Assembly: GCF_024346755.1 (NCBI RefSeq)
Contig: NZ_AP024861.1
Span: forward strand, 1-64,000
DNA: 64,000 bases
Reading direction: 5' to 3'
DNA from: Vibrio aerogenes
GTDB lineage: Bacteria; Pseudomonadota; Gammaproteobacteria; Enterobacterales; Vibrionaceae
The notes under the pieces are model-generated. The model made no database searches and was not told where the DNA came from. It was given only the letters and a program-made list of their open reading frames with translations. The position numbers were made by a program, and so were the translations under genes. How positions within the stretch are numbered: position 1 is the stretch's first letter; every line of letters starts with the position of its first letter. This document shows, one piece after another, positions 7,670 through 38,448 of the stretch.

Positions 7670-8716
7670 CTACAGATTTGGAGTCATACTTCCGGCATAT
7701 TTCCTGACCATTTTCCAGTCAGAAGGTGGTAACGGAATCAGCCCCCGATCTGTTAAATAGCCCTCTTCACCAATCGCATCTTCACTGGTAAAAGATGAGA
7801 CATATTCTTTAATCCCCGGAATAATGCCGACATGTGCTTTTTTCACGTAGAAATACAGTGAACGGGAAACCGGATAAGCGCCATCGCCAATGGCTTCAAA
7901 CGTTGGTGAGACATTATTGATTTTCGCTCCCTGAACTTTATCCCGGTTTTGATCGAGGAAACTGAAACCAAAGATACCGAAAGCGCCCGGATTGGAAACC
8001 AGCTTCTGGACAATCAGGTTATCGTTTTCACCAGCTTCGATAAAGGCACCATCCTCGCGAATACCGTGGCAGACTGCTTTAAATTTGTTTTTATCACTTT
8101 TGCTCAGGGCTTTCATTGACGGATGAGTTTTACATCCGGCTTCCATCACCAGTTCAACAAAAGCATCACGGGTACCGGATGTTGGTGGCGGCCCCAGCAC
8201 TTCAATTTTTGTATCAGGCAGGGCGCGGTTAATTTGATTCCAGCGTCTGTACGGGTTTTTCATCAGCTGACCATTTTTATCCGGTAATACTTTCGCCAGT
8301 GCCATATAAAGCTCTTTCACCGAGACATTCATGACGGGGGATTTGACTGAATTCGCCAAAGTGATTCCGTCATAGCCAATTTTGACTTCAATGATTTCGG
8401 TGACACCATTTTTTTTGCATTTGGCAACTTCCGAAGCTTTGATTTTCCGGGAAGCATTGGTGATGTCCGGGGTATTTTGACCCACACCAGAACAAAACAG
8501 TTTGAGTCCGCCACCTGATCCCGTTGATTCTATTTTCGGTACTTTAAACTGAGTTGATTTTCCGAACCTTTCCGCAACAACCGTTGCAAAAGGATAAACG
8601 GTTGAAGAGCCGACAATACTGATTTGTTCCCGGGCCAGTGCCGGTGTGGTCAGTATCATCAGCCCCAAAGTCCATACCAGCTTCTTCGTTGTGAGCCGCA
8701 TATTTTCTATATGCAT
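7670..8716 (-). CDS. pstS: Periplasmic phosphate-binding protein PstS
   Basis: A 348-residue secreted binding protein. A signal peptide covers residues 1-28 (KK, hydrophobic stretch, cut after PALA). Phosphate-contact segments of the family are visible: VGSSTVYPFA near the mature N-terminus, ESTGSGGG, and PPTSGTRDAFVEL. I chose the ATG at 8716, which has GGGGGAG six bases upstream; an in-frame ATG further upstream (8767) lacks such a site and would bury the signal peptide. First gene of pstSCAB and the likely PhoB-regulated entry point. Confidence 0.94.
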   Translation of the reverse strand: MHIENMRLTTKKLVWTLGLMILTTPALAREQISIVGSSTVYPFATVVAERFGKSTQFKVPKIESTGSGGGLKLFCSGVGQNTPDITNASRKIKASEVAKCKKNGVTEIIEVKIGYDGITLANSVKSPVMNVSVKELYMALAKVLPDKNGQLMKNPYRRWNQINRALPDTKIEVLGPPPTSGTRDAFVELVMEAGCKTHPSMKALSKSDKNKFKAVCHGIREDGAFIEAGENDNLIVQKLVSNPGAFGIFGFSFLDQNRDKVQGAKINNVSPTFEAIGDGAYPVSRSLYFYVKKAHVGIIPGIKEYVSSFTSEDAIGEEGYLTDRGLIPLPPSDWKMVRKYAGSMTPNL

Positions 8717-8803
8717 CGTGTTCTCCCCCGGATTTACTTTCATCAGTGTTGCCTTGAGTATATGCATTAAAAGCGTAGGCGGTTGTTTCTTTATTAACCA
8801 CGT

Positions 8804-8832
8804 CAGTCATGAATATTTCATCAGTTGTTCAT
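8804..8832 (+). promoter_or_regulatory. Candidate Pho-box-like direct repeats between pstS and the phosphatase gene
   Basis: Three 7-base units ending in TCAT repeat every 11 bases: CAGTCAT (8804), ATTTCAT (8815) and TGTTCAT (8826). PhoB binds 7-base CTGTCAT units separated by 4 bases, so the period is right, but the match to the consensus weakens from unit to unit. Their orientation points to the phosphatase gene at 8933. A weaker minus-strand pair (8887-8904, ATTTCAT-atgc-TAATCAT) could serve pstS. Confidence 0.35.
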
Positions 8833-8932
8833 ATAGGAATTGACATAACTATCTGTAATTAAAAAATAACATGAACGTCATATTAGATGATTAGCATATG
8901 AAATCATTCTGTTATGATTCAGGGACGAAAAA

Positions 8933-10333
8933 ATGGTCTGTCAAACCCGGCGCCACTTTCTTAAAACTACCGCGTTATTAGGGGCTTCTGCCTCTGTTGG
9001 ATTCAGCCTGACCGGATGTCAGGAAAATGATGACAACGAATCAGCAAACCTACGGTTTGCTGTGCTTTCTGACTTGCATGTTTATGATATTTCTCTGGGA
9101 GAAGAAGGCGCTGCATTTGAATCTTATGTCGCTTCTGATCGGAAAATGCTGGTGCAGAGTACGGAAATTTTGTCAGCAATGGTTGAGAAGTTGCTTGAGG
9201 TGAATGGCCTTCAGGCGGTATTAATTCCCGGTGATTTAACAAAAGATGGGGAACTGGTGTGTCACAATAAAGCGACTTCACTGTTACAACCATTGCGGGA
9301 TGCTGGTATCGCTGTTTTTGTTGTGCCCGGAAATCATGACATTAACAATCCGGATGCGGTGTCATTTTCCGGAGAAACAACAACCCCGGTTGAAAGTGTG
9401 ACCGCAGATAAGTTCGCCAACATTTATCAGGATTTTGGCTATGATGCGGCAATTGCCCGTCACGATGCCTCCTTAAGTTATGTTGCCGAGCCGGTAGAAG
9501 GCGTATGGTTAATTGGGCTTGATTCCTGTAAATACAGTGAGGAAGATAATGCGGAGTCACCGGAAACCTCCGGACAACTGACACCGGATTTACTGGATTG
9601 GGTTAGTGACCAGCTGAGTGCTGCACAGGCGCAGAATAAAACGGTTTTCGGTATGCTGCATCATGGCGTTGTGCCTCATTTTGGCAGTCAGCCCGATTTT
9701 TTCAGTGAATATTTAATTGATGACTATGAGACGGTTGGCAAACAACTGGCAGCGGGTGGGCTCAATCTGGTCTTTACCGGTCATTTTCATGCACAGGATA
9801 TTGCCAGTGCTGATTACAACAAGGATGGTTCGCTGGTTATGTATGATGTGGAAACCGGTTCGGTTGTCACTTCTCCCTGTCCGTTCCGGTTGATTGATTT
9901 GGATACGGCGACCGGCTCGATGAATATTGTCAGCACAGATATAGACAGTATTGATTCAATGGATGACTTTGCGACCTATAAAGAGACATTTATTTATACC
10001 GGGATGGAGAATCTGTATAAAAGTATGCTGCCGGCCACCCTTGAACAGATGGGCGTGACGCTCAGTGATGATGAACTGGAAACACTTGAGATGCTTGCTG
10101 CTGCATTACATGTGGCACATTACAAAGGTGATGAGTCACCAGAGCAAACCACGCTGGCCACTTTGACACAAATGATCAACAGCGGCGATACAACCACGGC
10201 GTATATGGGATCAAAACTCTATCAGCTGGCAGTCGATGACGGGTTAGCTGACAATAGCGTCAGTTTGTCGCCGTGGTCTGAAAATACTGCATTGATTCAG
10301 CGTTGGCTGAACCATCCCCGTCAGACCGCCTGA
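8933..10333 (+). CDS. Tat-exported calcineurin-like metallophosphatase lipoprotein
   Basis: A 466-residue metallophosphoesterase. The N-terminus carries both a twin-arginine motif (RRHFLK, residues 6-11) and a lipobox ending at Cys29 (SLTGC), so it is predicted to be exported folded and lipid-anchored. Dimetal motifs appear in family order: SDLH (46-49), PGDLTKDGE, GNHD, LHHGVV and GHFHAQD. The C-terminal 130 residues are helical and unassigned. AGGGAC precedes the start. It is divergent from pstS, which suggests a role in releasing phosphate from organic phosphates under phosphate limitation; the substrate is unknown. Confidence 0.85.
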   Translation: MVCQTRRHFLKTTALLGASASVGFSLTGCQENDDNESANLRFAVLSDLHVYDISLGEEGAAFESYVASDRKMLVQSTEILSAMVEKLLEVNGLQAVLIPGDLTKDGELVCHNKATSLLQPLRDAGIAVFVVPGNHDINNPDAVSFSGETTTPVESVTADKFANIYQDFGYDAAIARHDASLSYVAEPVEGVWLIGLDSCKYSEEDNAESPETSGQLTPDLLDWVSDQLSAAQAQNKTVFGMLHHGVVPHFGSQPDFFSEYLIDDYETVGKQLAAGGLNLVFTGHFHAQDIASADYNKDGSLVMYDVETGSVVTSPCPFRLIDLDTATGSMNIVSTDIDSIDSMDDFATYKETFIYTGMENLYKSMLPATLEQMGVTLSDDELETLEMLAAALHVAHYKGDESPEQTTLATLTQMINSGDTTTAYMGSKLYQLAVDDGLADNSVSLSPWSENTALIQRWLNHPRQTA

Positions 10334-10403
10334 ATTTTGAGAGAGCCCGTGAAGAACAGCCGGAGATTATATCTGGCTGTGAATTAACTGGTGTATTGGT
10401 GGT

Positions 10404-11195
10404 TTATTTGGATGTTGATGCTTGTAAATGAACCGAAAAACCGCTGTCACCCGGCCGAATATCTTCCCGCAGGGTTAAATCCGGGATCAGGTAGTCACCA
10501 CCATTTTGTTTGCGGAATGGTATGGGTGTGGTCAGATGTAAAGAATCCAGCCGTTGAGAAAGTGCATCGCAGATAGCCTGCATGCGCTGCGTATCCGTTT
10601 TTCCTGCCCGGTAAACCACAAAAGGGGGCAGCACTTCAAAGCCGGGGTAAAACAGCATGCCGTGATGAATCGGGAAGAGCAGATCATCCATCGGGCCGTT
10701 GACGCCACGTGCACTATAGTGAGATTCCCATCCTCCCGCAGTGACGAGTAACATGGCTTTTTTACCGGACAAATTCCCTTCACCGTAGCGATCTCCCCAG
10801 TGATGATCCGAATGTTCACCGTATCCATAGGCAAATCCGTAGGCATAAACCCGCTCAAACCAGCCTTTCATGATGGCCGGCATGGAAAACCACCAGAGCG
10901 GGAACTGAAAGATCACCGTATCAGCCCAACGGAGTTTTTCCTGTTCAGTGGCTATATCCGGGCTCTGTGTGCCGTTCTCATAGGCTGCTTTAGAATCCAG
11001 AGATGGATGAAATGGCGTGCTGTTATCCCGCACCAGGTTATCTTGATCATCCAGTGTTGGCTTCCAGCTCATTTGATACAAATCAGAAATACGAACCTGA
11101 TGACCCGATGATTCGAGGTGGTTGATCATAAAAGATTTGATGGCGCCATTGAGCGATTCTGGTTGTGGGTGTGCATAAACAATCAGGATATTCAT
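10404..11195 (-). CDS. NQO1-like NAD(P)H dehydrogenase (quinone)
   Basis: A 263-residue flavodoxin-fold oxidoreductase resembling NQO1/DT-diaphorase and the KefF/MdaB group. Visible motifs: LIVYAHPQPESLNGA at residues 4-18 (FAD/FMN phosphate binding), IFQFPLWWFSMPAIMKGWFERV at about 93-114 (split here: IFQFPLWWF and MKGWFERV), and TAGGW with a tyrosine-rich stretch for flavin binding. Predicted to carry out two-electron reduction of quinones in the cytosol. It is divergent from a LysR gene with a 90-base gap, the usual layout for a LysR-controlled reductase. Confidence 0.87.
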   Translation of the reverse strand: MNILIVYAHPQPESLNGAIKSFMINHLESSGHQVRISDLYQMSWKPTLDDQDNLVRDNSTPFHPSLDSKAAYENGTQSPDIATEQEKLRWADTVIFQFPLWWFSMPAIMKGWFERVYAYGFAYGYGEHSDHHWGDRYGEGNLSGKKAMLLVTAGGWESHYSARGVNGPMDDLLFPIHHGMLFYPGFEVLPPFVVYRAGKTDTQRMQAICDALSQRLDSLHLTTPIPFRKQNGGDYLIPDLTLREDIRPGDSGFSVHLQASTSK

Positions 11196-33157: not shown

Positions 33158-34735
33158 TTATTTATTTTCCGGTGTGAACTGATGTAGTGGAATATCTGAT
33201 GTCATCGGTGCAAAGTGCAGATTGCCAACGGAAGGCGATGCAATGGCCCAGCTGCTGATCCAGACCAGCGGCAGATAAACGGCATCATGGTGTAAACGGG
33301 TCATGATTTCGTGGTAGAGCTCCCGCCGTTTGGTTTCATCCGTGGTTAAAAGAACCTGCTTAATTTGCGCGTCGATGATCTGTTTATCCGGTAAGCCTTT
33401 TTGTGCCTGATAATCTGCATGGGCGGGCACCCGCATTGAACCAATAAATGCGTGAGGATCATAGGGAGCGCCCCATGTGGTATTAAAAATCATACCAAAT
33501 CGTCCATCCCGTTGCCGGGCAAAGACACTGCTCTCTTCTTCTGCAACCAGATTAACCTGAATTCCTGCCTGTTGTAAGTCTCCCTGAATGACTTCAGCCA
33601 TAGATTTTTGTACCGCATTGGTGCCGGTAAAGACCAGATCGATTTGCAGCGTTTGTCCGTTTTTCATCCGGGTTGAACCCTGTTCAGGCTGGTGCCATCC
33701 ATCTTGCTCAAGCAGTTGTCTGGCCTTATCTAAATCAAAGATATAGGGTTGAATTTTAGTCTCAGCATAAGGAATGTTGGGGGCAAATAATGTTTTGGCG
33801 GGTTGTTGGGTGTTATACAGCACTGTTTGGACCAGCATCTTTTTATTCACCGCGTGATTGATGGCTTGACGGACACTCAGATCGTTAGTGGGAAATCTCT
33901 GACTGTTGAGCGCCAGCATTGATGTTTCTGCTGGTTCAGAGACCTTTGTGACCCATCGTCTTGAATGACTGAGTTGATCAAACATGTCCGGAGAAATAAT
34001 CCCGTTAGCGCCATAAAGCAGATCAACTTCTCCGGTTTGAAGTGCCATTGCCCGGCTGGTGGGATCGGCGATCACTTTCACCGTGATTTGCTCGTAAGCC
34101 GGTGCTGTTCCCCAATAATCCGGGTTACGTTCAAACCGGTCATACTGGGCATGGCGGGTTTCTTTCAGAACCCACGGCCCGGTTCCTATCGGCTTTTTTA
34201 TGCCGTTTTTGGTTGTGCCGTTAACAAACTGAGAGGGCGCGATAAACCGGAATGGACGGGGCAGAGCCAGCTCCTGTAACAACGGATAATAAGCATGTTT
34301 CAGCGTTAGCACGACTTTGTCCGGGGCTGTCGCCTGAATACTTTGAATTTCATTCACCAGCTCCAGCCAGCTATGCCGGGCTTTATTATCGAGAACGGCA
34401 TGAAAGTTGGCAATAACAGCCTGAGCGTTGAATGGTTCACCATTGGAAAACTGCACACCATGACGCAGTGTAAAAGTATACACCCGGCCATCTTTGGAAA
34501 TATCCCAGTGCGTTGCCAGCCATGGCTTCACCTGACCATCCGCCTGATACTGTACTAATGGTTCATAAACCATACTCTGGGCGAACATTTGGTTCGGTGT
34601 GTATAAATGGGGATTCAGCTCACCGACATTCACCGGCCATGCCATATTCAGGTTGGCAGGAGATTGCGCGAAGCTGGCGAGAGGGAGTGTGAAGATCACA
34701 GTGGCCCACACCATGAAAAGTCGTCTGATAGACAT
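33158..34735 (-). CDS. nikA: Periplasmic nickel-binding protein NikA
   Basis: A 525-residue binding protein from the ATG at 34735, whose signal peptide ([23 protein letters not shown]) is well formed; an ATG at 34750 is also in frame and neither has a clear ribosome site. It follows E. coli NikA closely: [20 protein letters not shown] at the mature start and [12 protein letters not shown] then [10 protein letters not shown], whose histidine corresponds to His416, a ligand of the Ni(L-His)2 complex. It heads nikABCDE. No NikR gene or convincing NikR site was found. Confidence 0.94.
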
Positions 34736-35025
34736 GAAAAAAAGAACCATTGGGTCAAAAAAAGAGTCGGTATTTTACGACAAAAGGTGTGTGAAAACAG
34801 AGCGATCCAGATCAAGGGAATGGTGATTTTAATTGCATATTCCATAAATTAGTATTGTCAATAGTGAGTCAGCCTGCAATTGTGATGAAGAAGACCGATC
34901 ATTTTTGTTCGCTGCGGTGCAATGATATGATGAACCAACTATGCTCAGTAAGTTTCTGTTTGTCATGGTAATACCGGTTGGCATGATTTCAGGAACTGAT
35001 GTTGTCTGAACGGAAGTAACGACTC

Positions 35026-37692
35026 ATGCCATTTAATTCAATGAAATTTTGTCACCCATGGCATCCATGTCAGCAGCGCGTGCTTTATGCGGTGAAGCAG
35101 CATTTATGTGATCGACGGCTTCATCTCGTTGCTGCTCCTGGTGCAGGTAAAACTGTGCTGGGGCTGGAAGTGTTCCGGATGTTGGGAAAACCAGCCATGG
35201 TGTTGTCGCCGACCCGGATGATTCGTAACCAGTGGATTGACCGGCTTGAAGATTTTTGTGAAACAGACACTCCCCGTGAGTTACCCTGGGTTAGCCGTTC
35301 TTTTCACCAGCCCGGTATTCTGACAGCAACGACCTATCAGGCATTACTGACCCGTTTTCCCGGTGAATGTCGTGATGAAGAACCTGAAATTCAGCAAATT
35401 CGTAAAAATCCGGCAGAGGATGATATTCATCACTTCATTGCGGTGCTGGAGCAACATCATATCCGTGTATTAATCCTTGATGGTGTAAACCAGTTGAGGG
35501 CGGAATGGTGGCGCGCGCTGAAGACCGTGTGTGATAATTTTCCGGACATGACGTTGGTCACTCTGACGGCAACACCGCTGTATGACGTGCGTGAACCTGA
35601 CCGGATTGAGTATGAACAGCTGTGTGGGCCGGTTGATGAAGAAATTTCAGTCCCGGAGCTGGTGAAAGCCGGAATACTTTGTCCACATCAGGATTTTATC
35701 CGTGCCTGTGATGCGACTGTCACTGAGCAAAAACAGATTGAAGACTATGATCGACAGGTCTTAACCGTTTGTCAGTCATTATTGAACAGCCGGGAATTTG
35801 AGCAAATTGTCTGTGCCCATCCCTGGCTACATCAGACAGACATTGAGTCAGATGTCGTCAAATCCCCGGACATAGCCATTGCGTTGATGAGCTTTTTAAA
35901 AGCCAGACATTGTCCGGATGGACAGGCTTTGATGCAGGTCTTCGCTCTGACGTCTCAGGATATTCCGCAACTGGACCGTCAGTTGTGGCAGGTGCTCATT
36001 GACAGTGTGCTGTTCTCAGACACGTTTCAGCACCCACAGCATCTTCAGCCCTTTGTCTTGCAACTGCAAGCGCTGTTGCAAGACAAAGGATTGCTGGAAA
36101 AGCGTGTGTTATCTCTTGAGTCTTCTTCTCCGGCGACACATTTCCTGTCTTCCAGTGTTGCTAAAATCGATGCGTGTATCGACATTCATCAGCTTGAATA
36201 CCAACAACGGGGACAAGACCTGCGTCAGGCCATTTTAACGGATTATATCCGGGATGAAATGTTGGGCTCAGGGCAAAACAACGGGGAGATAAAACTGGGG
36301 GCCTGGCCTGTATTTGAGGCGCTGGCTTCCTGTTCTCCGGTGCCGGATCAACTCGCTTTACTGACGGAGCGTTTAACATTATTGCCATCCGGTTTACTAC
36401 CATCCTTGTTGATGTTTATCGATCCACAACAGGTCCGGACAGAGTTACTGGCGGATGAACAGGGTTATCAGGGCTCGCGGTACGTTGAATCCTGCTATGT
36501 TAAAGTTTCGGCACCGCCGGACCAGCTATCGGAGGCAATGACGGCGTTATTCACTTCAGGAAAAATCAAAGTATTAGTCAGTACCAGCGCTCTTCTGGGC
36601 CAGGGCTGGCAGGTGCCGGTACTCAACTCTTTGATTCTTGCCAGTTCCGCCGGTTCTCCGGTGTTGACTAACCTGATGCGGGGACGTGCGATGCGGTTTG
36701 ATCCCCAAAATCCGCATCAAGTCAGCGCCATTTGGCATCTGGTTGCGCTGAACACCCGTTCTGTCAGTGGTTTTAGTGATTTGCTGAATCTGATCCGCCG
36801 CTTTGACTCTTTTACCGGACTTTCGGAAAAAGATAATTCGGTTGAAAGTGGCTTTAGCCGGATGGATCTGAATCACCTGATGCTCCCATCGATTGCCGGT
36901 CAAAAAATATCTGTTTCAGCGCACAATCGTCAGACCGAAGCTCGTTTCCGGCAACTGGTACAAATTGAAAGCCGCTGGCATCATGCATTGGCTGCTGATA
37001 GCTCTGATGGCCGGGTTATGCCTGCTGTGACAATGGTTCGTAAGCCTGAAATCAGAGCGCATGTTCTGCGTCATGCATTCTCCTGGCTGACTTCTCAGGT
37101 GTTTGGGCCAGTGTTGCTGGCGCTGAGTTATGCTTATGTCTTCCCGCCGGTCTGGACTTATACGATGACTTTTGTCGTGCTGATCGTTGCCGGTGTTCTG
37201 CTGTATAAGCTTCCTGAAACTGTGAAAACACTTCGGATGTTATGCCGTTATTTACCCGCTGATAGTGCTTTATACCAGATAGGGAATGCTTTGAGAGATT
37301 CACTGTGTCAGTCCGGGTTGATCAAGACACCTATGATGCAGCTCAAAGTCAGGCGCGCCAGAATGCCCGACGGGCGGTTTCACCTTTGTCTGACTGGTGG
37401 CACCTATTATGACGCTTCTCTGTTTGCTGATTGTCTGGCAGAGATATTTGCACCTGTAGAAACCCCCAAATTTCTGTTGGTATGCTCTGGGGCGCTGAGT
37501 AAGTGCCGGGATTATTACGCTGTTCCCCGGAGGTTTGCATCTGGTAAAGAAACCACTCAGATATTCTCCCGGAACTGGAACAAATCTGTGTGGCCGTCTG
37601 AACTCATTGACACTGAATCAGTTGAAGGCAGAAAAGTGCTTTTAAAGGCCAGAGGCCAAGATGTTGCTTCTGTTTGCCGGGAAGAGGTCTGA
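35026..37692 (+). CDS. Large SF2 helicase-like protein with membrane segments and degenerate motif II
   Basis: An 888-residue protein. The N-terminal half resembles SF2 helicases: Walker A AAPGAGKT at 36-43, motif Ia SPTRMIRNQW at 61-70, TATP (motif III) at 181-184, motif V LLGQGWQVPVLNSLIL and motif VI LMRGRAMRFD in the 510-565 region. Motif II, normally DEAH or DECH, reads DGVN at 152-155, so the catalytic Glu and His are missing. Two adjacent hydrophobic helices near 686-735 predict membrane attachment, with a C-terminal domain of about 150 residues after them. It stands alone, divergent from nikA and upstream of higBA. Function unknown; defence or regulation are guesses. Confidence 0.7.
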   Translation: MPFNSMKFCHPWHPCQQRVLYAVKQHLCDRRLHLVAAPGAGKTVLGLEVFRMLGKPAMVLSPTRMIRNQWIDRLEDFCETDTPRELPWVSRSFHQPGILTATTYQALLTRFPGECRDEEPEIQQIRKNPAEDDIHHFIAVLEQHHIRVLILDGVNQLRAEWWRALKTVCDNFPDMTLVTLTATPLYDVREPDRIEYEQLCGPVDEEISVPELVKAGILCPHQDFIRACDATVTEQKQIEDYDRQVLTVCQSLLNSREFEQIVCAHPWLHQTDIESDVVKSPDIAIALMSFLKARHCPDGQALMQVFALTSQDIPQLDRQLWQVLIDSVLFSDTFQHPQHLQPFVLQLQALLQDKGLLEKRVLSLESSSPATHFLSSSVAKIDACIDIHQLEYQQRGQDLRQAILTDYIRDEMLGSGQNNGEIKLGAWPVFEALASCSPVPDQLALLTERLTLLPSGLLPSLLMFIDPQQVRTELLADEQGYQGSRYVESCYVKVSAPPDQLSEAMTALFTSGKIKVLVSTSALLGQGWQVPVLNSLILASSAGSPVLTNLMRGRAMRFDPQNPHQVSAIWHLVALNTRSVSGFSDLLNLIRRFDSFTGLSEKDNSVESGFSRMDLNHLMLPSIAGQKISVSAHNRQTEARFRQLVQIESRWHHALAADSSDGRVMPAVTMVRKPEIRAHVLRHAFSWLTSQVFGPVLLALSYAYVFPPVWTYTMTFVVLIVAGVLLYKLPETVKTLRMLCRYLPADSALYQIGNALRDSLCQSGLIKTPMMQLKVRRARMPDGRFHLCLTGGTYYDASLFADCLAEIFAPVETPKFLLVCSGALSKCRDYYAVPRRFASGKETTQIFSRNWNKSVWPSELIDTESVEGRKVLLKARGQDVASVCREEV

Positions 37693-37876: not shown

Positions 37877-38155
37877 ATGATCAAAACATTTAAACATAAA
37901 GGACTCAGAAAGTTTTTTGAGACTGGCAGTTCAGCAGGTATTCAGTCCAGACATCAGCATAAGCTGAGAATGTTGTTGGCAGCAATAGATACCGCCGTCA
38001 CTATTGATGACATTGATTTGCCTGGTTTTAATCTACATTCTCTGCATGGGAACCGGGAGGGGACATGGTCAGTTATGGTGAGTGGTAACTGGCGTATTAC
38101 TTTCGAATTTACCAATGGTCATGCATATATACTTAACTATGAGGACTATCATTGA
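37877..38155 (+). CDS. higB: HigB-type toxin (RelE superfamily)
   Basis: A 92-residue RelE-fold ribosome-dependent mRNA interferase of the HigB group. The typical opening MIKTFKHKGLRKFFETG, the RLLAAIDTA-like helix region, and the LHSLHGNREGTWSVMVSGNWRITFEF core (read in segments) are present, ending NYEDYH. Toxin first, antitoxin second is the higBA order. The start has no Shine-Dalgarno and lies at the predicted transcription start. Toxin and antitoxin frames overlap by one base. Confidence 0.92.
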   Translation: MIKTFKHKGLRKFFETGSSAGIQSRHQHKLRMLLAAIDTAVTIDDIDLPGFNLHSLHGNREGTWSVMVSGNWRITFEFTNGHAYILNYEDYH

Positions 38156-38448
38156 TGAAAATGCATAATCCACCGCACCCGGGCGAGTTTATTCTCAGTA
38201 TTTATATGGAGCCTTTCGGTTACAGTTGCCGTTACGTCGCGCAGCAACTGGATGTTGCATCTTCGACACTAAGCCGGATTCTTAAAGGGCAAAGTGCTGT
38301 TTCTCCGGAAATGGCATTGCGTTTATCTAAAGCATTAGGACGCAGTCCTGAGAGTTGGCTGGCAATGCAGGATAATTATGATTTGTGGCAGGCAAGGAAA
38401 AAAGTGAATCTCTCCCGTGTCCGGACCATTCAGTTTGTTGCGTTGTAA
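38155..38448 (+). CDS. higA: HigA-type antitoxin (XRE family)
   Basis: A 97-residue antitoxin from the ATG at 38155, which overlaps the higB stop (TGATG); an ATG at 38161 is also possible. It contains the HigA signature HPGEFILSIYMEP near the start and an XRE helix-turn-helix at about 24-65 (YVAQQLDVASSTLSRILKG and PEMALRLSKALGRSPESWL). It should neutralise HigB and repress the promoter at 37844-37871. Confidence 0.93.
   Translation: MKMHNPPHPGEFILSIYMEPFGYSCRYVAQQLDVASSTLSRILKGQSAVSPEMALRLSKALGRSPESWLAMQDNYDLWQARKKVNLSRVRTIQFVAL

What the first reader, a model, noticed from the sequence alone, without database searches (positions are those of the whole stretch)
35026..37692. Helicase-like protein with a degenerate Walker B and predicted membrane anchor
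The sequence shows a full set of SF2-type motifs except motif II, which reads DGVN where DEAH or DECH is expected, and the WWRAL context after it is preserved. Two hydrophobic helices near residues 686-735 are unusual for this fold. Loss of Glu and His should impair ATP hydrolysis while Walker A is intact, suggesting an ATP-binding sensor or scaffold, or decay of an active ancestor. It sits by itself between the nickel operon and a toxin-antitoxin pair, a typical setting for defence or accessory modules. This is my best candidate for an undescribed system.
Basis: partly seen in the sequence, partly recalled or inferred. Interest (0 to 1): 0.72.

Follow-up and report, generated by a model that had tools for sequence, protein, structure and literature searches.

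The report
Degenerate orphan helicase, canonical in sister
One bacterium's copy of a widespread but unstudied DNA-motor-like protein has lost its fuel-burning residues, while the copy at the same chromosomal place in a related species keeps them; the gene still reads as a nearly full-length protein, so it is either a retired motor kept for another job or a gene on its way out.

Summary
In detail: window 35026-37692 encodes an 888-aa SF2 helicase-like protein with DGVN at motif II and a hydrophobic hairpin. It belongs to an uncurated XPB/ResIII-like family, mostly 870-945 aa, seen in many bacterial phyla and in Asgard-archaeal MAGs. All 82 other aligned members carry DEAH (70) or DECH (12), as do 12 of 12 closer relatives, so DGVN is unique in this sample. 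Motif II is not the only loss: 16 of 101 near-invariant positions changed (family median 1), motifs V and VI included. A canonical, syntenic ortholog (64% identity; neighbours 84-93%) sits in another species of the genus. Amino-acid change is one-sided: 81 window-only against 6 ortholog-only at 450 columns; neighbouring genes are balanced. Purely neutral decay would predict about 10 stops; none is seen. The upstream region is 87% conserved. Best reading: a species-private pseudohelicase, with an incipient pseudogene as close rival. Defence context found no support: no recurring partner, and no defence model hit by more than one of 128 neighbours. The hairpin is a family trait.

The parts
35026..37692 (+). 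888-aa SF2 (XPB/ResIII-like) helicase-family protein, catalytically degenerate
35134..35154 (+). Walker A / motif I, APGAGKT, residues 37-43, intact
   Evidence: G41, K42, T43 invariant
35479..35490 (+). motif II, DGVN (residues 152-155), where 82 of 82 other aligned members have DEAH or DECH
36580..36618 (+). motif V region, residues 519-531: G519S, E526Q and D529Q relative to near-invariant family residues
36670..36696 (+). motif VI, NLMRGRAMR (residues 549-557): Q550L and I556M; R552, R554 and R557 kept
37045..37251 (+). hydrophobic helical hairpin, residues about 674-742; a family trait
   Evidence: helices; hydropathy in 74 of 83 members
37264..37689 (+). conserved C-terminal alpha/beta domain, residues 747-888; the last residues of the relatives (KRxDRW-like end) are missing
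   Evidence: no convincing PDB or BFVD fold match
34898..35025 (+). conserved upstream region, 86.7% identical to the sister species, with GGAAG 9 bases before the start codon (ribosome-binding-like, by eye)
   Evidence: intergenic shared with the divergent transporter operon; promoter-like matches no more than in shuffles
33158..34750 (-). solute-binding protein of ABC transporter (SBP_bac_5), first gene of the flanking operon; syntenic marker
37877..38448 (+). HigB-like toxin (37877-38155) and HTH antitoxin-like gene (38152-38448); syntenic marker

Best explanation
The gene is a vertically kept, species-private pseudohelicase. Its family is an XPB/ResIII-like SF2 translocase with a membrane-type hairpin and its own C-terminal domain; intact members presumably hydrolyse ATP to move on double-stranded DNA near the membrane (inferred from fold and motifs only). 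In the window lineage the hydrolysis machinery was lost (Glu and His of motif II, conserved residues of motifs V and VI) while Walker A, the motif VI arginines, the reading frame, the hairpin and the upstream region were kept. The protein would bind ATP and perhaps DNA at the membrane without turning over, acting as a structural or regulatory remainder of the ancestral machine. Shown: residue losses, their uniqueness in the sample, synteny, one-sided amino-acid change in this gene and not in four neighbours, intact frame, conserved upstream region. Inferred: no ATPase activity, membrane insertion, retained binding, any function.
For: DGVN unique among 83 aligned members. 16 of 101 near-invariant positions changed; next highest member 11, median 1. 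Canonical syntenic ortholog in G889, 64% identical, neighbours 84-93%. 48 changes only in the window protein and 0 only in the ortholog at 256 columns unanimous in six outgroups, 11 changed in both; 81 against 6, 53 in both, at 450 columns with closer outgroups. Four neighbouring transporter genes are balanced (5/7, 6/3, 3/2, 7/3). Pairwise dN/dS 0.156 against 0.015-0.088 in 13 flanking genes. Two-ratio codon fit: omega 0.246 on the window branch, 0.078 elsewhere (LRT 37.1); omega = 1 on that branch is worse (LRT 28.0). A loss of this size under neutrality needs roughly 265-290 point mutations and leaves about 10 stops; none is present, and at 287 mutations 0 of 400 simulations were stop-free. 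Upstream 128 nt 86.7% identical against 46-56% at fourfold sites of five genes. Precedent: Deinococcus radiodurans PriA, a pseudohelicase that keeps DNA binding (PMC4504706, abstract and outline seen).
Against: The losses are not concentrated in ATPase motifs (18 of 81 motif columns against 30 of 164 others, P=0.50), and omega is raised about 2- to 4-fold in all five regions, C-terminal domain included. A targeted pseudoenzyme would keep a specially conserved patch; none was found. The exchanged residues are only slightly more conservative than random (mean BLOSUM62 -0.27 against -0.61, P=0.036). The C-terminal end of the relatives is gone. The gene is rare (3 of 227 genus genomes) and reduced to a 59-residue scrap in G969, so loss is tolerated. 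The omega contrast between the two sister branches is not robust: with a separate omega for the ortholog the fits give window 0.192 / ortholog 0.153 (LRT 4.0) and, with distant outgroups, window 0.149 / ortholog 0.177 (LRT 3.6); synonymous sites are near saturation, so the one-sidedness rests on amino-acid counts. The branch test has little power in the control genes (omega = 1 gives LRT only 3.0 for nikA and 2.5 for nikB).
Confidence: 0.5

Rival explanations
1. Incipient pseudogene: function was lost in this species, selection is weak or gone, and the frame is open mainly because strong relaxation is recent or incomplete.
For: Loss of constraint is spread over the whole protein; near-random exchanges; lost C-terminal end; patchy presence and remnants or broken copies elsewhere: G969 scrap, one in-frame TGA in L089, Rhodovulum copy annotated as two genes, stops inside the match in L009 and L018.
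Against: Zero internal stops where a fully neutral phase of the needed length predicts about 10; omega = 1 is a poor fit (LRT 28.0); conserved upstream region; the gaps against the ortholog are all in frame.
Confidence: 0.38
2. Still an active ATPase that uses another residue as catalytic base, with compensating changes in motifs V and VI.
For: Walker A, TAT of motif III and R552/R554/R557 are kept; several changed positions lie in motifs that meet at the ATP site (contacts recalled, not computed).
Against: Loss of Glu, His, the motif V Asp and the motif VI Gln together is what inactivation looks like (SF2 enzymology, recalled); similar loss in the C-terminal domain (14 of 42 unanimous columns) is not explained by compensation in the ATP site.
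Confidence: 0.06
3. Part of an anti-phage defence module, as suggested by the first reader.
For: Partial matches to the PbeA helicase core (best 1.9e-14 in L035); patchy distribution; HigB/HTH neighbours.
Against: No conserved partner gene seen; the commonest Pfam domains among neighbours are regulatory and metabolic (first 25 of 116 families shown), and in flavobacteria the gene has a stable chromosomal place beside haem-biosynthesis-like genes (named by eye; ALAD and Coprogen_oxidas domains); no full-length member among viral contigs; each PADLOC model matched by one of 128 neighbours only.
Confidence: 0.05

Closest known systems
XPB/Rad25 (TFIIH, archaeal XPB) SF2 translocases
   Different: Scores far below the XPB cut-off (21.8 bits here, at most 58.4 of 610 among ten members); a long middle region (about 231-440), a hydrophobic hairpin and a C-terminal domain without a match; the window copy lacks the catalytic Glu and His.
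ResIII (type III/I restriction helicase subunits), RadD
   Different: No nuclease or methylase domain in the proteins scanned and no recurring partner.
Deinococcus radiodurans PriA pseudohelicase
   Same: A lineage-restricted loss of helicase motifs in an otherwise catalytic family, protein kept (PMC4504706 abstract).
   Different: PriA is a replication-restart protein with measured loss of ATPase and kept DNA binding; here nothing is measured and constraint fell over the whole protein.
PbeA of the PADLOC 'Pbe' candidate defence system
   Same: Helicase-core similarity, E down to 1.9e-14 in one relative.
   Different: Matches cover only parts of the helicase core; no Pbe model in the list for neighbours.

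Membership tests
Uncurated XPB-like family with hairpin (this family) | Full-length co-linear similarity incl. C-terminal domain | tested here: met
   98-99% coverage at 28-30% identity in five records; 64% to the syntenic ortholog over 1-888
Uncurated XPB-like family with hairpin (this family) | DE[AC]H motif II, GWD[AS]P motif V, NQMRGR motif VI | tested here: not met
   DGVN, GWQVP, NLMRGR in the window protein; 82 of 82 others DEAH/DECH. Filed as a degenerate descendant by ancestry and synteny, not as a functional member
Uncurated XPB-like family with hairpin (this family) | Hydrophobic hairpin between helicase core and C-terminal domain | tested here: met
   Peak 1.95; 74 of 83 members have 1.6 or more
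XPB (NCBIfam NF045503) | Score above curated cut-off of 610 bits | tested here: not met
   21.8 bits for the window protein; at most 58.4 in ten relatives
Catalytic SF2 ATPase | ATP hydrolysis | not testable with these tools
   Motif loss only
Pseudohelicase kept by selection | Loss of catalytic residues with retained coding constraint | tested here: inconclusive
   No stops, omega below 1, conserved upstream against protein-wide relaxation
Pseudogene | omega near 1, stops or frameshifts | tested here: not met
   omega = 1 on the window branch is a poor fit, LRT 28.0; no internal stop; the lost C-terminal end is the one disruption seen
Anti-phage defence system (PADLOC 2023) | Full-length model match and recurring partner genes | tested here: not met
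   Partial helicase-core matches only; neighbour scans

The most novel reading that the evidence does not exclude
A previously undescribed family of mostly solitary, membrane-hairpin XPB-like translocases spans bacteria and Asgard archaea, and in one species the motor has been turned, in place, into a selected ATP-binding but non-hydrolysing protein, giving a natural active/inactive pair at the same locus in sister species.
Probability: 0.3. Interest if true: 0.6.

Novelty: new variant of a known kind. Interest (0 to 1): 0.36.

Why it matters
The DGVN protein itself looks like a private loss in one species, but it points to a widespread, uncurated helicase family with a predicted C-terminal domain for which no fold match was found here. 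The syntenic canonical/degenerate pair is a ready-made comparison for asking what that family does at the membrane and whether the activity is dispensable.

Tried and rejected

Rows dropped: of 85 fetched homologs L002-L086, three with broken frames (L004, L009, L018) were left out of the 83-row alignment; L004 reads DEAH, L018 DEAH or DECH, L009 was not assessed for motif II. The regular-expression census missed 7 of 97 loci; six of these are DEAH or DECH, the seventh is L009. Of 178 confirmed loci the scan kept the best 80. Of 150 neighbour proteins listed I put 128 in the scanned alignment, leaving out 22 by hand, mostly short ORFs; no control neighbours were scanned. Structure job A3 used 56 rows.

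Full report
Observation. The ORF at 35026-37692 (+) is open over 888 codons. Motif II reads DGVN with the downstream LRAEWWRAL kept, Walker A is APGAGKT, and Pfam sees ResIII over residues 12-184. The hydrophobic stretch is real: one strong peak (708-726) and one weak peak (687-705), and AlphaFold draws long helices there.

Family. Protein-level searches found relatives over 98-99% of the query at 28-30% identity in Paenibacillus, Tritonibacter and gut scaffolds. One scan of the species-representative genome collection with a 5-sequence alignment confirmed 178 loci and kept the best 80, from Pseudomonadota, Bacteroidota, Bacillota, Verrucomicrobia, and MAGs labelled Thorarchaeota and Lokiarchaeota, among others. 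Most predicted proteins are 870-945 aa. Ten members scanned match mainly generic SF2 or ATPase models in Pfam, and in NCBIfam stay far below every cut-off. Profile and structure comparisons place the core nearest XPB. The C-terminal 158 residues fold confidently (mean pLDDT 87.1) but matched nothing convincing.

Is DGVN general? No. In 83 aligned sequences, 70 have DEAH, 12 DECH and one, the window's, DGVN. Twelve closer relatives (L087-L091, L096, L097, L113-L117; L091 looks the same as L007) also have DEAH. The window protein departs from 16 of 101 positions conserved in at least 93% of the family; the next is 11 (L003, partly mild exchanges), and the median is 1. The losses include the catalytic Glu and His and residues of motifs V and VI, but also many positions elsewhere.

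Where it comes from. Within the genus 3 of 227 genomes carry the gene; in the family 8 of 329 have a full-length copy (counting rows; the call's own tally of 31 includes short hits), in an order sample 6 of 394, and in a class sample of 369 only the own genome. G889, of the same genus, has a 64%-identical copy at the same place: same transporter operon, same HigB/HTH pair, same allophanate-hydrolase and urea-carboxylase-like genes, neighbours 84-93% identical. That copy is canonical at motifs II, V and VI and keeps the C-terminal end that the window copy lost.

Which branch changed? At 256 columns unanimous in six outgroups, 48 changed only in the window protein, 0 only in the G889 protein and 11 in both; with closer outgroups 81, 6 and 53 of 450. 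Four neighbouring transporter genes show balanced changes (5/7, 6/3, 3/2, 7/3). Pairwise dN is 0.25 against 0.04-0.10 in 13 flanking genes, while fourfold-site identity (0.466) is like that of a neighbour (0.462). A two-ratio codon model gives omega 0.246 on the window branch and 0.078 elsewhere (LRT 37.1); omega fixed at 1 is worse (LRT 28.0); four neighbours show no significant branch effect (LRT 0.2, 0.4, 2.0, 2.6) but have little power. Results against a clean contrast: giving the ortholog branch its own omega yields 0.192 (window) and 0.153 (ortholog), LRT 4.0, and with more distant outgroups 0.149 and 0.177, LRT 3.6, where the two-ratio fit was 0.182 against 0.081. With synonymous sites near saturation the branch omegas are soft; the one-sidedness rests on the amino-acid counts.

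Decay or pseudoenzyme? For decay: the losses are spread (18 of 81 motif columns, 30 of 164 others, P=0.50); all five regions are raised about 2- to 4-fold; exchanges are barely more conservative than chance; the C-terminal end is gone; relatives are broken or reduced elsewhere. Against pure decay: replacing a fifth of invariant positions neutrally takes roughly 265-290 point mutations and leaves about 10 stops, and at 287 mutations 0 of 400 simulations were stop-free; no internal stop is present. The 128 bases upstream are 86.7% identical between the species, against 46-56% at fourfold sites of five genes, though part of that region may serve the divergent operon. I therefore favour a kept pseudohelicase (0.5) over an incipient pseudogene (0.38), without a decisive test.

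Defence? Neighbours within six genes on either side (907 ORFs called mechanically) show no partner shared across phyla; the shared blocks are common families (response regulators, ABC ATPases) and stable flavobacterial chromosomal regions. Among 128 near neighbours in 38 loci, 24 defence models were matched at E<=1e-15, 18 of them methyltransferase models, each by one neighbour (no control set). The defence reading found no support here.

Membrane anchor? A hydrophobic segment is present in 74 of 83 members, and the short Rhodobacterales forms (L003, L072) lack it, so it is a family trait but not universal. Membrane insertion is a prediction only.

Verdict. The finding is real as seen, but it is, in this sample, a private degenerate copy in an otherwise canonical family for which I found no description. 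The interest lies in that family and in the canonical/degenerate pair at one locus.

Noticed in passing
A3/A4 family members (e.g. L096, L016, L015, L035): A widespread uncurated XPB-like family with a hydrophobic hairpin and a C-terminal domain without a fold match, seen in bacteria and Asgard-labelled MAGs; it deserves a finding of its own.
   Followed up: partly
L089 1465-4194; L009 8001-10563; L004 5806-8300; L018 about 7983-10658: Copies with an in-frame stop, stops inside the match or a split gene in other genomes, suggesting recurrent loss.
   Followed up: partly
L149 7532-7708; L151 12992-13156: Remnants of the gene: a 59-residue N-terminal scrap in G969, and small C-terminal scraps next to a full copy in G975.
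   Followed up: partly
L003 and L072: Rhodobacterales members are about 780 aa and lack the hydrophobic hairpin.
   Followed up: no
window 34898-35025: Upstream region unusually conserved between sister species; may hold regulatory sites for both divergent genes.
   Followed up: partly
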